Part shown: one piece after another, positions 3,390 to 8,936 of the stretch
Numbering within the stretch: position 1 is the first letter of the stretch
Layout of the letters: every line of letters begins with the position of its first letter
Assembly: GCA_030066135.1 (NCBI GenBank)
Contig: JASJCD010000004.1
Span: 1 to 37,732 of the forward strand
Source of the DNA: Desulfobacterales bacterium
GTDB lineage: Bacteria; Desulfobacterota; Desulfobacteria; Desulfobacterales; UBA5852
Reading direction: 5' to 3'
DNA length: 37,732 nt
Made by a program: the position numbers and the translations under genes
The notes under the pieces: model-generated
The model's input: the letters and a program-made list of their open reading frames with translations, nothing else
What the model was told of the DNA's origin: nothing
The model's database searches: none

Positions 3390-4151
3390 ATGGAAACGGC
3401 CCTTTTAACCGACACCCATACCCACATCTGCGACACGGTCTTCGACGCGGATCGCGAGGCGGTGCTGGTGCGGGCGGCGGCGGCCGGGATCGGTGCGGTG
3501 ATTGCCGTCGGTGAGGATCTCGCGGATGCCAAAAAGAACATCGCTCTGGCCCGGGACTACCCGATCCTGAAGCCCGCGGCCGGCCTGTACCCCACCCATT
3601 TGGATCGGGCCGCGGCCGCCGCCATGATGGATTTCATCCGGGCGCACCGGCGCATGCTCGCGGCCATCGGCGAAGTGGGGTTGGACTTCTGGGTGGTCAA
3701 GACCAGCGAGGAGCGCAACATCCAACGTGAGATTTTTACGAGCTTCATCGATCTGGCGTTGGAACTGGACCTTCCCCTGAACGTCCACTCGCGTTCCGCC
3801 GGACGGCATACGGTGGAACTGCTGCTCACCCACGGGGCCCGACGCGTACAGATGCATGCCTTCGACGGTAAGATCACGGCCGCCCGTCCGGCGCTGGAAG
3901 CCGGGTACTATTTTTCAATTCCGCCCTCGATCGTCCGATCCCGCCAGAAACAAAAGCTGGTGCGCCATCTTCCCCTGGAATCCCTGCTGGTCGAAACCGA
4001 CAGCCCGGTGCTGGGGCCCGATCCCCAGGCGCGCAACGAGCCGGCCAACCTGATGGTGGCCATTGATGCCATCGCCGCAATCAAGGACCTGACACGCGCG
4101 GCCGTCAGCGCGGCCGTGGCGGTCAACACCCAAACCCTGTATGGCTTCTAA
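3390..4151 (+). CDS. TatD family metal-dependent hydrolase
   Basis: 253 aa; DTHTHICD, AAIGEVGLDFW, LNVHSRSAGRHT, ETDSPVLGP. Confidence 0.92.
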   Translation: METALLTDTHTHICDTVFDADREAVLVRAAAAGIGAVIAVGEDLADAKKNIALARDYPILKPAAGLYPTHLDRAAAAAMMDFIRAHRRMLAAIGEVGLDFWVVKTSEERNIQREIFTSFIDLALELDLPLNVHSRSAGRHTVELLLTHGARRVQMHAFDGKITAARPALEAGYYFSIPPSIVRSRQKQKLVRHLPLESLLVETDSPVLGPDPQARNEPANLMVAIDAIAAIKDLTRAAVSAAVAVNTQTLYGF

Positions 4152-4687
4152 CCGGACATCTCTACGAAATAGTACCCATAGAAAATGCCCCAGGCACTCA
4201 GAATCAGGGCGGTGTCATGCGCGCGCACCCGGGCGGGGACAAGTCTTTGGAAGAGGAAGTGCACCCCGGCCGTAACGAGTACGAAGCGGATGCCGCGGGC
4301 GGGCACCGACACCAGCATGAAGACGATCCAGCCGATATGGGCGTCGGCCGCCTGGGCGGCGTAGAGTTTGTAGGGTGTGCCGGTGAGGGGGCCCATAAAG
4401 ATCACGAGGACCCCGTGGTCGGTCAGCTGCGTCGCCACCCGCGCCACCATGGCTGGACTGATGGCCGGGACTTTTTCGATCACGGCGAGAGCCCCCGGCC
4501 GATCGTAAACGCCCCAGGCATAGACCAGCGCTCCACCTGCCAGGGCGCCGGCCAGCGCCCACAAGCAGGCCTGCAGACCGGTTTTGAGACGCCGCCGGCC
4601 GGCCAGGCTGAGCCAGACGTCGGGAACGACGAAAAACAGGGTCGCCTCCGCCAGTCCCCACAGCCCCGCGGCCAGATTTACGACCAC
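4148..4687 (-). CDS. small multi-pass membrane protein (VTT/DedA-like)
   Basis: 179 aa with several TM segments; last gene of the lipid operon, overlaps the plsC-like gene by 10 nt. Confidence 0.6.
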   Translation of the reverse strand: MVVNLAAGLWGLAEATLFFVVPDVWLSLAGRRRLKTGLQACLWALAGALAGGALVYAWGVYDRPGALAVIEKVPAISPAMVARVATQLTDHGVLVIFMGPLTGTPYKLYAAQAADAHIGWIVFMLVSVPARGIRFVLVTAGVHFLFQRLVPARVRAHDTALILSAWGIFYGYYFVEMSG

Positions 4688-5334
4688 GAGGGGAAGTTGC
4701 CTTCCTGCGACAAGGCCGACATGCTGGACTCCAGGCGGTGCATGAAGTCCCGGCGATCTTCCGCACCATATAGCGCTTCGCCCACAAAGACGTCGCAGAA
4801 GAACGGCACCAGCAGCTTTTCACCCTTGGGCAGGGCCTTGCCCAGGCCATGCAGCAGCACCGGGGTCACCGGTATCTCGGGAAATCGTGCCGCCAATTTG
4901 GCGATGCCGCCCTTGAAAGCGGCGAGTTCTTCAGGCTGGCCGCGGCTGCCTTCGGGGAAGAAAATCAGAACCTGCCCCGCTTCCAGGGCGGCGTAGCAGG
5001 GGGCCAGCAGGTCTTCGTCCGGTTTCTCCCGCTGGCGCTTGAGGGGCAGAATGCCGATGATATTCAGGGCCAACCAGGCTTTTTGCGGGGTGGCCAGAAA
5101 ATAGTCGGCGGCGGCCACGGGTTGGATCCGGGAGAGCAGACCTGCAGGCAGCAGCGTGATGAGGACCATGGTGTCCAAATGGCTGTTGTGGTTGGCCACC
5201 ACGATGGCCGGGCCCTTGCGGGGCAGGCGTTCGCGGTGGCGCACGTTGAGCCCCAGGACAATTAGGACCACCAGCCGGACGACGATCCGGTAGAAGAGGT
5301 AGCGCAGCAGGCGAATGATGAAATCCATGCGCAT
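4678..5334 (-). CDS. plsC: 1-acyl-sn-glycerol-3-phosphate acyltransferase family (PlsC-like)
   Basis: 218 aa; NHNSHLD (HX4D-type) and FFPEGSRGQPEEL acyltransferase motifs. Confidence 0.9.
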   Translation of the reverse strand: MRMDFIIRLLRYLFYRIVVRLVVLIVLGLNVRHRERLPRKGPAIVVANHNSHLDTMVLITLLPAGLLSRIQPVAAADYFLATPQKAWLALNIIGILPLKRQREKPDEDLLAPCYAALEAGQVLIFFPEGSRGQPEELAAFKGGIAKLAARFPEIPVTPVLLHGLGKALPKGEKLLVPFFCDVFVGEALYGAEDRRDFMHRLESSMSALSQEGNFPSWS

Positions 5335-5336
5335 GG

Positions 5337-6278
5337 TCAGTAGTAAAGATAGTAGATGAAGTGAAAGAAGAGGGGCGCCGTGTAGGTCAGGCTGTCGATA
5401 CGGTCCATGATGCCCCCGTGTCCGGGCAGCAGGCGGCCGCTGTCCTTGACGCCGATATCGCGCTTGACGGCCGAAATGGTGACATCGCCGACGAACCCGG
5501 CCGTGCTGATGATGATGCCGGCCAGGAAGGCCAGGGGGATGCTGAGCGGTGTGAGCAGGCCGCTCAATACCACAGCCAGGACGGTGGTGGTGCCGACACC
5601 GCCCAGGAAGCCTTCCCAGGTCTTGTTGGGGCTGACATTGGGAACGATCTTGCGCCGCCCTATGGATTTACCCCATAGAAACTGAGCCACATCGTTGGAC
5701 TGGGTTAAAAACACCAGGTAGAGCAGCAGGCCCGGGCCGCCTGCCCCGGATTCACCCGCCGTCGGAAGCACCAGGAGATAGGCCACGTGGCTGATGCTGA
5801 ACACCAGCGTCATCAAACCCCAATGCAGGGTGCCGGCCGAGCGCAGAAAATCCCGCGTCTCGCCCACGATCACCATGCAAAGCGGCAGGAAGAGAAAAAC
5901 ATAGACCGGAATGAAGACGATAAACAACCCGTACCATTCGATGCCCGCCCAGAAATACTGCAGGGGGATGGCCAGATAAGCCCATAGCAGAACCCGCCGA
6001 TCGGCACGACGGGTGGGGATGATGGATAAGTACTCTTTAAGGGCCAGGAAACTGACGACAGCGAAGAAAAACAGAGAAACATTGCGACTCAAGGCCATGG
6101 CCAGGGTGAAGATCGCAACCATCACCCACCAGGAGCGGATGCGCAGACCGATCTCGGTGAAATCCGTCGCGGGGCGCGTCTTCTTGAGAAAGAGATAAAC
6201 CACCGTGGCCACGATGAGAATCCCGAACAGACCGCCCAGCGACCAGAGCACCGTGGGGCTGATGTGACCGGTGCTCAT
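5337..6278 (-). CDS. ynbB: phosphatidate cytidylyltransferase family (CdsA/YnbB-like)
   Basis: 313 aa; C-terminal signature SPNKTWEGFLGG...AVKRDIGVKDSGRLLPGHGGIMDRIDSL. Confidence 0.88.
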   Translation of the reverse strand: MSTGHISPTVLWSLGGLFGILIVATVVYLFLKKTRPATDFTEIGLRIRSWWVMVAIFTLAMALSRNVSLFFFAVVSFLALKEYLSIIPTRRADRRVLLWAYLAIPLQYFWAGIEWYGLFIVFIPVYVFLFLPLCMVIVGETRDFLRSAGTLHWGLMTLVFSISHVAYLLVLPTAGESGAGGPGLLLYLVFLTQSNDVAQFLWGKSIGRRKIVPNVSPNKTWEGFLGGVGTTTVLAVVLSGLLTPLSIPLAFLAGIIISTAGFVGDVTISAVKRDIGVKDSGRLLPGHGGIMDRIDSLTYTAPLFFHFIYYLYY

Positions 6279-6886
6279 GCGACCTCCTCGAGCGCCTGCC
6301 GGGCGCGGTTACGAATGGTTATTCCCAGCAGGACCAGCACCCCGGTCAGAACGATGTTGACGAGCAGGTGGATTTTGAACCCCAGACCCAGAAGCAGGCC
6401 GATGAGGCCGAAGGTGAAGGCCCGGTCGCTCTTGCCCATGGGGCCGTCGTAGCGGCGCTGGGCCCCGATCTGGATGGCCACGACGCCGGTCATTTCACTG
6501 ATGAGGGCCATCACCACGGCGATCACGACCAGACTGCCACACACGCCGGGAATGAGAGCAAATGGCAGATAGAGGGCGGCATCCGAGATGACATCACCGA
6601 GTTCGTTCAGAATAGCGCCTTCGGGGCTTTGCATGGCGTGCTCGCGGGCCAGCATGCCGTCGATGGCATTCAGGGCCATGCGGATAAACAAGACAGCCGG
6701 CACCAGCAGCAGGGGCCAGTGCCAGTGATTGGCGGCCCCCAGGGTCGTCAGGAGGCCGGTGGCCAGAGAAAGGGACAGGGCCACGAGCGTGACCTGGTTG
6801 GCCGTGATGCCGCGGTTTGCGAGGCGACCGACGATCGGGCGGAGCAGGGCCTGGAAGCGCGGTTTAAGATCATAAATGGTCGGCAT
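6275..6886 (-). CDS. ynbA: CDP-alcohol phosphatidyltransferase family (YnbA-like)
   Basis: 203 aa; NAIDGMLAREHAMQSPEGAILNELGDVISD, a variant of the DX2DGX2ARX8GX3DX3D motif; ATGA overlap with the next gene. Confidence 0.85.
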   Translation of the reverse strand: MPTIYDLKPRFQALLRPIVGRLANRGITANQVTLVALSLSLATGLLTTLGAANHWHWPLLLVPAVLFIRMALNAIDGMLAREHAMQSPEGAILNELGDVISDAALYLPFALIPGVCGSLVVIAVVMALISEMTGVVAIQIGAQRRYDGPMGKSDRAFTFGLIGLLLGLGFKIHLLVNIVLTGVLVLLGITIRNRARQALEEVA

Positions 6887-7158: not shown

Positions 7159-7569
7159 TTACCTGGCCTCGACCGGGTACTTGGCCCGGAACCATTCCCG
7201 CCAGCCGCCTTTCAGGGCGTATACATTTTTGTATCCGTCAGCCATCATCGTGCGTGCCAGACCGGCACTAGAAGCTTCGTTGGGTCAGGCGCAGTAGAGG
7301 ACGTATTTTTTATCTTTGGGATAAGTGCCCTTCCAGTCCGCATACTTGTTCGATTCGACATGGGTGGCACCTTTGATTTTGAACTCCGATGACTTCCAGT
7401 CCTTGCCCGCACGGACGTCCAAGATCACCAGATCGGGATCATCGAGCATAGGTTTAAGGTCATCCTTGGTCATCAGTCCTACGCCAGCAACGGCGGAGGA
7501 TGCCGCCAGCCCCGTCATGATGAGCATGGCGATCAGTAAGCCAAAAAGTGAAAGTCGGGGTATGATCAT
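7159..7569 (-). CDS. secreted rhodanese-domain selenoprotein; in-frame TGA (7285-7287) read as Sec at codon 95
   Basis: The ORF track stops at ...KDKKYVLYCA(TGA). Reading through gives U-PNEASSAGLARTMMADGYKNVYALKGGWREWFRAKYPVEAR then TAA at 7159-7161. GY-NVYALKGGWREW is the conserved rhodanese C-terminus. Signal peptide MIIPRLSLFGLLIAMLIMTGLAASSAVA; SD GGAAGGAG. Confidence 0.88.
7254..7268 (-). promoter_or_regulatory. putative bacterial SECIS hairpin for the rhodanese
   Basis: Minus strand GTGCC-GGTCT-GGCAC: 5-bp stem, 5-nt loop whose first G is 22 nt after the TGA. Confidence 0.65.
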
Positions 7570-8936
7570 TGTGATACTCCTTCCTTTGGATGCGACGCCT
7601 TGCGGCGACGGCTAAAAGGCCGACGGGCGGCCAATAGTCCTGCAGCGGCCAATGCGGCGGCTATCGTTATCAGAACCAGAATTGCACGTAATAGTAATAC
7701 GGGGGTTTCGTCGGTCCATACCAGTATAACTCCTGTTGAAACCATGGCCACCAAGAGCGCGAGGTGGACGATACTGCCGGCGGCAGCCCGGAGTGGCACA
7801 GGTTCTTGGTCTCGACGGGTTCCGGGGAACAGGGACGGCAGGTGAGACAGCCCGATGCTGGTGATCCAAATGATAAGCCCAGCTCGCAGGGATGTGTCCA
7901 GCCAATCCGATCCGGCGAAACCGACCGCCATCAGAAGGCCGGTCACACCCGTCATCGTCACGAGGGGCAGCCATGGCCGGGATGGCGACAGGCCGGCAAT
8001 GGCCGGCATCAACCCGCGTTCGGCCAAGACGGTCATCATCTGGGCCACGGCCTGAAAGAGGAAATTCACAGCGGCGCAGGCACCGGCGATCACGACGACA
8101 CCGATGACGAGTCGGCCGCTGGGGCCCATAATGGCCTTGGCTGCCAGGATGTGCGGAATGCTGGTATCTGCCAGCCGCGACGCGCCAACATGGGTGAGGG
8201 CGGCCGTGTTCCAGGCCCAAAAAAATAGACCGGCGGAGGCAAGGCCGATGAACACCAGGGTTCTGGCCCGGCGGTGATCGAGACCGGGTGAGGTATAGCG
8301 CAGCAGGTCGTAACCGATAAAAGCGACGGCTGCCAATCCGATGGTTTGTAAACCGCTACCGAAAGCCGTCAGGGGTTCATTCGGCGCTGACCCCCCTGCG
8401 CCGGCCAGACCGATTACCGTCAGAACGGCAAGACCGGTTAAGGAGGTCAAAAAAAACAGGGATTGAGCCAGCGCCGTTATGCGTCGGCCGGCAAGATTCA
8501 GGGCCAGCACGCTGGCCAGAAGCAGGGCGGCAAACCCGAAGTTGGGAAACCAGTAGACGAAGATCTCATTGAAAACGAAACCTGCCGTGACCAGAGTTGC
8601 CGTGGCCATAAGGATGGCCACCGCCGGCCGTGCGGCCAGCATTATAATGGATGCGCCCCATGCGCCGAAAGCGCTTCGCAAGTGGCCGACTTCATCCGTC
8701 CAGGAACTGGTGACGATATTCAATCCGTGCAGGCCCACAACCGCCGTTAGTAGCCAAAAGATGCGCCCACCGCTGGCGCCAGCGATATTGCCTTGTAATC
8801 CCAGGGCTTCGGGTGAAAGCATTATCGCCGTCAACCAAGCCAGGGCAGAAAACTGTTGGAGGCGGTTCGGCATATGGCTAAGTCGTTCGCAGTTGGATTG
8901 GCTTACACTTTTTTGAGCCGTCAGTGCTGTGATCAT
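7566..8936 (-). CDS. APC-superfamily (amino-acid-type) permease
   Basis: 456 aa, about 12 hydrophobic segments, LSPEALGLQGNIAG-type N-terminus; stop overlaps the rhodanese start (ATGA, 7566-7569). Confidence 0.78.
   Translation of the reverse strand: MITALTAQKSVSQSNCERLSHMPNRLQQFSALAWLTAIMLSPEALGLQGNIAGASGGRIFWLLTAVVGLHGLNIVTSSWTDEVGHLRSAFGAWGASIIMLAARPAVAILMATATLVTAGFVFNEIFVYWFPNFGFAALLLASVLALNLAGRRITALAQSLFFLTSLTGLAVLTVIGLAGAGGSAPNEPLTAFGSGLQTIGLAAVAFIGYDLLRYTSPGLDHRRARTLVFIGLASAGLFFWAWNTAALTHVGASRLADTSIPHILAAKAIMGPSGRLVIGVVVIAGACAAVNFLFQAVAQMMTVLAERGLMPAIAGLSPSRPWLPLVTMTGVTGLLMAVGFAGSDWLDTSLRAGLIIWITSIGLSHLPSLFPGTRRDQEPVPLRAAAGSIVHLALLVAMVSTGVILVWTDETPVLLLRAILVLITIAAALAAAGLLAARRPFSRRRKASHPKEGVSQ

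What the first reader, a model, noticed from the sequence alone, without database searches (positions are those of the whole stretch)
4148..6886. YnbA/YnbB-like lipid operon with an Asn-substituted CDP-alcohol phosphatidyltransferase motif
Four overlapping or near-abutting genes encode a CDP-alcohol phosphatidyltransferase, a CdsA-like cytidylyltransferase, a PlsC-like acyltransferase and a small membrane protein. The first enzyme reads N-x2-DG-x2-AR-x8-G-x3-N-x3-D where the family has D-x2-DG-x2-AR-x8-G-x3-D-x3-D, so two of four metal/catalytic Asp are Asn. From memory, E. coli YnbA carries the same Asn substitutions and sits next to YnbB. This suggests a dedicated, poorly understood lipid pathway rather than the housekeeping one.
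Basis: partly seen in the sequence, partly recalled or inferred. Interest (0 to 1): 0.6.

Follow-up and report, generated by a model that had tools for sequence, protein, structure and literature searches.

The report
Accessory lipid operon with Asn-substituted transferase
A bacterium carries, besides its normal membrane-lipid genes, a compact second set whose key enzyme has two of its four metal-binding aspartates replaced by asparagine; this set recurs across many bacterial phyla, is the relative of E. coli ynbAB and of a Pseudomonas operon (arc1) that helps cells survive attack by rivals' lipid-cutting toxins, and what lipid it makes is still unknown.

Summary
Observation confirmed. Window 4148-6886 (minus strand) holds four tightly packed genes: a CDP-alcohol phosphatidyltransferase homologue (ynbA-like), a CdsA-like gene (ynbB-like), a plsC-like gene, and a membrane protein that looks like a divergent VTT/DedA relative. 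The YnbA-like protein reads N-x2-DG-x2-AR-x8-G-x3-N-x3-D. Aligned with solved structures, the two Asn sit at D1 and D3, both metal ligands. E. coli YnbA (49-50% identical) has the same two Asn.

The N/N pair was invariant in every full-length relative read, including samples drawn without motif bias, and forms one branch of the tree. The genome has a separate housekeeping cdsA and canonical CDP-alcohol transferases; all 25 other ynbA genomes tested hold at least two CdsA genes. YnbA, YnbB and PlsC occur together in 69 of 80 loci from many phyla. New link: the operon is homologous to Pseudomonas arc1A-F (PA2541-PA2536), known to protect against T6SS attack, including lipase effectors; PA2541 is an N/N YnbA. 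The likely mechanism is an accessory PA -> CDP-DAG -> phosphatidyl-X line. The acceptor X, and whether the N/N site is catalytic, are unknown. Defence in this organism is inference.

The parts
6275..6886 (-). YnbA/Arc1A-like CDP-alcohol phosphatidyltransferase homologue; motif N73-x2-D76-G-x2-A-R-x8-G90-x3-N94-x3-D98 (two of four Asp are Asn)
   Evidence: structure model pLDDT 93.7, best fold matches are PIP synthases 5d92/5d91/6h59
5337..6278 (-). YnbB-like CDP-diacylglycerol synthase paralogue; CDS signature SAVKRDIGVKDSGRLLPGHGGIMDRID intact
   Evidence: (50% to E. coli YnbB, 29% to the genome's own housekeeping CdsA)
4678..5334 (-). PlsC-like 1-acylglycerol-3-phosphate acyltransferase; NHNSHLD (H-x4-D) and FPEGSR motifs intact
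4148..4687 (-). divergent VTT/DedA-like membrane protein, possible lipid flippase/scramblase; optional member of the operon
   Evidence: conserved next to the core genes in 19 of 80 loci

Best explanation
This is an accessory, horizontally mobile phospholipid-synthesis operon, homologous in its core to E. coli ynbAB and Pseudomonas arc1A/E/F. Proposed working: PlsC acylates lysophosphatidate to phosphatidate, YnbB turns it into CDP-diacylglycerol, and YnbA transfers the phosphatidyl group to a special acceptor, probably one that carries a phosphate, in a rebuilt active site where Asn replaces the metal ligands D1 and D3 while D2 and the presumed base D4 remain. The VTT/DedA-like protein may move the product (or a lyso-lipid) across the membrane; larger versions add YnbC (hydrolase + methyltransferase) and YnbD (PAP2 + dual-specificity phosphatase). 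The most likely benefit is repair or reinforcement of the membrane under lipid damage, as suggested for arc1 by its protection against lipase effectors. Shown: homology, gene order, the conserved Asn pair, the extra CdsA. Inferred: the acceptor, the order of reactions, the role of the Asn, and the protective role in this organism.
For: Motif and orthology to YnbA/YnbB. YnbA+YnbB+PlsC in 69/80 loci from many phyla, with no other gene recurring across more than five loci beside the ynb/VTT genes. N/N invariant, also in unbiased samples, one branch of the tree, support 93/85. More divergent N/N lineages are also linked to YnbB- and PlsC-like genes (L133-L138). At least two CdsA genes in 25/25 genomes. 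Catalytic motifs intact in YnbB and PlsC, so lipid flow into YnbA is expected. The fold is that of PIP synthases. The two arginines that bind the acceptor phosphate in PgsA1 (R155, R195) are kept as R155 and R194, while the inositol-phosphate-specific R94 is V99. PA2541 is an N/N YnbA by exact match of the published inner deletion-primer sequences; P. aeruginosa lacking arc1A is more sensitive to T6SS attack and lipase effectors (PMC8926400, PMC12663445).
Against: Asp-to-Asn or Ser changes at these motif positions strongly reduce or abolish activity in MjPSS (PMC8633023), so YnbA may not be a classical transferase, or not an enzyme. No substrate or product is known. The phosphate-binding arginines are shared by other members of the superfamily and do not single out an acceptor. 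The window operon lacks YnbC and YnbD and neither was found in the (80% complete) genome, so arc1 phenotypes may not carry over. The E. coli ynbB knockout has no clear growth or MPIase phenotype.
Confidence: 0.55

Rival explanations
1. YnbA is a non-catalytic member of the fold that binds CDP-DAG (or another liponucleotide) and hands it on, or regulates YnbB/PlsC: a scaffold or sensor rather than a transferase.
For: Two of four metal-site Asp replaced without exception; the same kind of substitution cripples MjPSS.
Against: The rest of the site is extremely conserved: D76, D98, R69, E131, GPxGKSDR and R194 are invariant across phyla; a pseudoenzyme would be expected to lose D2/D4 and other catalytic residues in some lineages.
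Confidence: 0.2
2. YnbA/YnbB make GlcNAc-PP-diacylglycerol, the MPIase precursor: YnbA would use a sugar 1-phosphate as acceptor, so the nucleophile is already an anionic phosphate and a less negative metal site would suit it.
For: YnbB overproduction raises MPIase and YnbB does not replace CdsA for bulk phospholipid (PMC6362211; PMC7018664). Arginines of the phosphate site are kept.
Against: CdsA makes the compound in E. coli and the ynbB knockout has no significant MPIase defect; ynbB was not necessary for ECA-PG. The operon is patchy, whereas MPIase is reported as essential in E. coli.
Confidence: 0.12
3. The operon is a spare copy of ordinary phosphatidylglycerol or inositol-phosphate lipid synthesis with drifted residues.
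For: Family profiles nearest to YnbA are archaetidylinositol-phosphate and PIP synthases; four arc1 products are described as resembling phosphatidylglycerol-synthesis enzymes.
Against: Scores are far below those families' cut-offs (66 versus 180 bits); R94 of inositol-phosphate users is lost (V99); N/N is fixed rather than drifting.
Confidence: 0.08

Closest known systems
E. coli ynbA-ynbB (ynbABCD operon)
   Same: YnbA 49-50% identical with the same two Asn; YnbB 50% identical; same order and tightly packed genes
   Different: E. coli has ynbC and ynbD and no plsC or VTT gene there; the window has plsC and VTT, with no ynbC or ynbD found. Budviciaceae have ynbA-ynbB-plsC-ynbC-ynbD, bridging the two
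Pseudomonas arc1A-F (PA2541-PA2536), antagonism resistance cluster 1
   Same: Arc1A is a YnbA with N/N (56% to the window protein); YnbB- and PlsC-like genes present
   Different: Six genes in the order YnbA-YnbC-YnbD-small membrane protein-PlsC-YnbB, under Gac/Rsm control; the window version is smaller and its regulation is unknown
PIP synthase / archaetidylinositol-phosphate synthase (CDP-alcohol phosphotransferases)
   Same: Same fold (TM 0.74-0.76 to 5d92/5d91/6h59) and motif spacing; phosphate-site arginines kept
   Different: D1 and D3 are Asn; R94, K135 and R137 equivalents lost; below the curated cut-offs
CdsA housekeeping CDP-DAG synthase
   Same: CDS signature in the C-terminal half
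   Different: Dissimilar N-terminal half; present in addition to another CdsA in the genomes tested

Membership tests
CDP-alcohol phosphotransferase (DxxDGxxAR...GxxxDxxxD) | Pfam CDP-OH_P_transf profile and fold | tested here: met
   29.6 bits versus cut-off 22; structure model matches PIP synthases
CDP-alcohol phosphotransferase (DxxDGxxAR...GxxxDxxxD) | four motif aspartates D1-D4 that bind two metal ions | tested here: not met
   D1 and D3 are Asn, D2 and D4 kept; it is a homologous variant, not a canonical member
CDP-alcohol phosphotransferase (DxxDGxxAR...GxxxDxxxD) | CMP-releasing transferase activity | not testable with these tools
   needs biochemistry
YnbA/Arc1A subfamily | N/N motif plus GPxGKSDR and full-length similarity | tested here: met
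YnbA/Arc1A subfamily | linked to YnbB-like and PlsC-like genes | tested here: met
Arc1 (antagonism resistance cluster 1) | YnbC- and YnbD-like genes in the cluster | tested here: not met
   not in the operon; own genome (80% complete) gives only a weak hydrolase match (24% identity) for YnbC and nothing for YnbD
Arc1 (antagonism resistance cluster 1) | protection from T6SS effectors | not testable with these tools
   shown only for P. aeruginosa (PMC8926400, PMC12663445)
inositol-phosphate-using CDP-alcohol phosphotransferases | basic residue after D4 (R94 of PgsA1) | tested here: not met
   V99 in the window protein; Val in 78 of 84 aligned rows and never Arg or Lys
CDP-DAG synthase (YnbB) | CDS signature | tested here: met
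VTT/DedA family (fourth gene) | PF09335 profile | tested here: inconclusive
   5 of 17 relatives match, best 1.8e-7, the window protein itself does not; no PDB fold match

The most novel reading that the evidence does not exclude
The N/N clade is a distinct class of lipid transferase with a non-canonical (one-metal or carboxylate-poor) active site that makes an undescribed phosphatidyl-X lipid, produced by a mobile operon spread over many bacterial phyla and used to withstand lipid-damaging attack.
Probability: 0.35. Interest if true: 0.8.

Novelty: new variant of a known kind. Interest (0 to 1): 0.55.

Why it matters
YnbA is an uncharacterised protein encoded in most sequenced E. coli (ynbA-C matched in 4577 of 5426 complete genomes), and Pseudomonas arc1 has a defence phenotype without a mechanism. 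Showing that both, and operons like this one in many phyla, share one core with an invariant Asn pair joins two separate literatures and makes a sharp test possible: what lipid does an N/N transferase make, and does it need the Asn?

Tried and rejected
(1) The substitution as sequencing error, drift or chance: rejected, invariant in all full-length relatives read. (2) Ascertainment bias: the genome-contig scan used Asn-containing patterns, so the check was repeated with unbiased searches. (3) Only cdsA in the genome: rejected. (4) Extra conserved neighbour genes beyond the ynb set: searched, none in more than 5 of 80 loci. (5) PADLOC defence models: no match for the four window proteins. (6) The VTT-like protein against PDB by sequence and by fold: no match. 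(7) Co-occurrence with Arc3A (PF10101): 8 of 19 ynbA Gammaproteobacteria versus 1 of 19 without, but genome size differs between the sets, so it is not used; none found in the window's genome. (8) Coordinates of the models were not available, so metal-site geometry could not be measured. (9) Literature searches for YnbA, or for Asn in this motif, found no functional study of YnbA in the held library.

Full report
WHAT IS THERE. The window's minus strand carries, in transcription order, a 203-aa CDP-alcohol phosphatidyltransferase homologue (6886-6275), a 313-aa CdsA-like protein (6278-5337), a 218-aa PlsC-like protein (5334-4678) and a 179-aa membrane protein (4687-4148). Genes overlap by 4 bp, are 2 bp apart and overlap by 10 bp, as in one transcription unit; the last runs 4 bp into the convergent tatD gene. 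Pfam confirms the first three. The fourth has no Pfam match alone, but five of 17 relatives found at the same place after plsC match the VTT domain (PF09335, best 1.8e-7). Its model is confident (pLDDT 92.6) but finds no PDB match.

THE MOTIF. The first protein reads NAIDGMLAREHAMQSPEGAILNELGD. Aligned with M. tuberculosis PgsA1 (6h53/6h5a), N73 is at D68 (D1) and N94 at D89 (D3); D76 and D98 match D71 (D2) and D93 (D4). In PgsA1, D68, D71 and D89 hold Mg-1, D89 also holds Mg-2, and D93 is the presumed base (PMC6506517). In MjPSS any change of the motif Asp to Ser or Asn reduces or abolishes activity (PMC8633023). So both Asn replace metal ligands. E. coli YnbA has the same pair.

IS IT MORE THAN CHANCE? 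All 80 have both Asn and KSDR. Because that scan was seeded by Asn-containing peptides, unbiased searches were added. In 395 genomes of the phylum five match at 110 bits or more, the window's own included, all N/N; the next matches (about 44 bits) are D/D proteins. In 370 Gammaproteobacteria there are 20 full-length YnbA-type hits (one is the search centre), all N/N. In the Pseudomonas family 53 of 149 genomes have it; all 30 loci read are N/N. A second lineage at 57-74 bits (CNLLDGMVA...YNE.PD) is also N/N and in five of six fetched cases lies next to PlsC- and YnbB-like genes. In a tree of 29 proteins all N/N rows are one side of a single branch (support 93/85; deep branches are long, so one origin is likely, not proven).

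GENE NEIGHBOURHOOD. Of 80 loci, 69 hold YnbA, YnbB and PlsC together, most often in that order; 19 also have the VTT-like gene and 10 have YnbC and/or YnbD. No other family recurs in more than five loci. Budviciaceae (L070, L082, L091) have ynbA-ynbB-plsC-ynbC-ynbD, so the E. coli ynbABCD operon looks like the same set without plsC. Distances of YnbB and PlsC are strongly correlated (r 0.87), those of YnbA with either more weakly (r 0.32-0.33, all above 999 permutations).

SEPARATE HOUSEKEEPING GENES. The genome (an 80% complete assembly) has another CdsA at G000:C76 in a frr-uppS-cdsA-dxr neighbourhood (gene names read from the translated sequence), and canonical CDP-alcohol transferases at C29 (two domains in one 520-aa frame) and C222. 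All 25 other ynbA genomes tested have at least two CdsA genes. The operon is patchy: 4 of 58 relatives. In the same genus G004 has it beside tatD, while G002, 99% complete, has tatD without it.

LINK TO ARC1. Pseudomonas viridiflava L090 has YnbA-YnbC-YnbD-small membrane protein-PlsC-YnbB, six genes. P. aeruginosa arc1A-F is PA2541-PA2536, six genes of which five concern phospholipids (PMC8926400). To check identity the paper's PA2541 deletion primers were used: the inner primer sequences match exactly at the start (GGACTGGCTGACATGATTTCC) and end (CAGGCCTGAGAGGGAACG) of the ynbA gene in genome G966, which has the six genes in the same order as L090. The outer primers do not match exactly, so G966 is a close relative of PAO1, not PAO1 itself (its length, 6,588,339 bases, is from memory that of strain PA7). 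Its Arc1A is N/N and 56% identical to the window protein. arc1 is induced through Gac/Rsm danger sensing and protects from B. thailandensis T6SS attack; strains without arc1A are more sensitive to lipase effectors of V. cholerae and A. baylyi (PMC12663445). A text search of PMC8926400 finds no mention of YnbA.

HOW IT PROBABLY WORKS. [quoted passage not shown] A dedicated supply of CDP-DAG to YnbA is the natural reading. YnbA keeps the two arginines that hold the acceptor phosphate in PgsA1 (R155, R195 -> R155, R194, invariant) but not R94, K135 or R137. This fits a phosphate-bearing acceptor other than inositol phosphate, but similar basic sites exist elsewhere in the superfamily. Loss of two carboxylates suggests a one-metal or otherwise altered site. 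These last points are inference.

LIMITS.

Noticed in passing
L132-L137 (G768, G656, G484, G472, G790, G778): A second N/N lineage of CDP-alcohol transferase homologues (YnbA2: CNLLDGMVA.E..YNE.PD, GPMAKQHR) that in five of six loci is also beside PlsC- and YnbB-like genes, and has lost the Arg of the AR motif.
   Followed up: partly
L176 (G004:C155) about 4884-5051: In the closest relative with the operon the VTT-like gene is reduced to a short remnant between tatD and plsC (only 19 aa of homology), so the fourth gene seems dispensable there.
   Followed up: partly
L138, L139: Two further, very divergent N/N homologues (32-34% identical to the window YnbA), one with YnbB and PlsC, one with YnbB and YnbC.
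   Followed up: partly
L007 and E. coli collection: ynbA-C is matched in 4577 of 5426 complete E. coli genomes; the five top-listed records carry insertion sequences inside the locus.
   Followed up: no
L002 (G000:C29): The genome has a 520-aa frame with two CDP-alcohol transferase domains in tandem.
   Followed up: no
window 7566-8936 (-) and 7285-7569 (-): A permease-like protein with no Pfam match sits beside a small rhodanese; both are also beside the operon in the relative G004.
   Followed up: no
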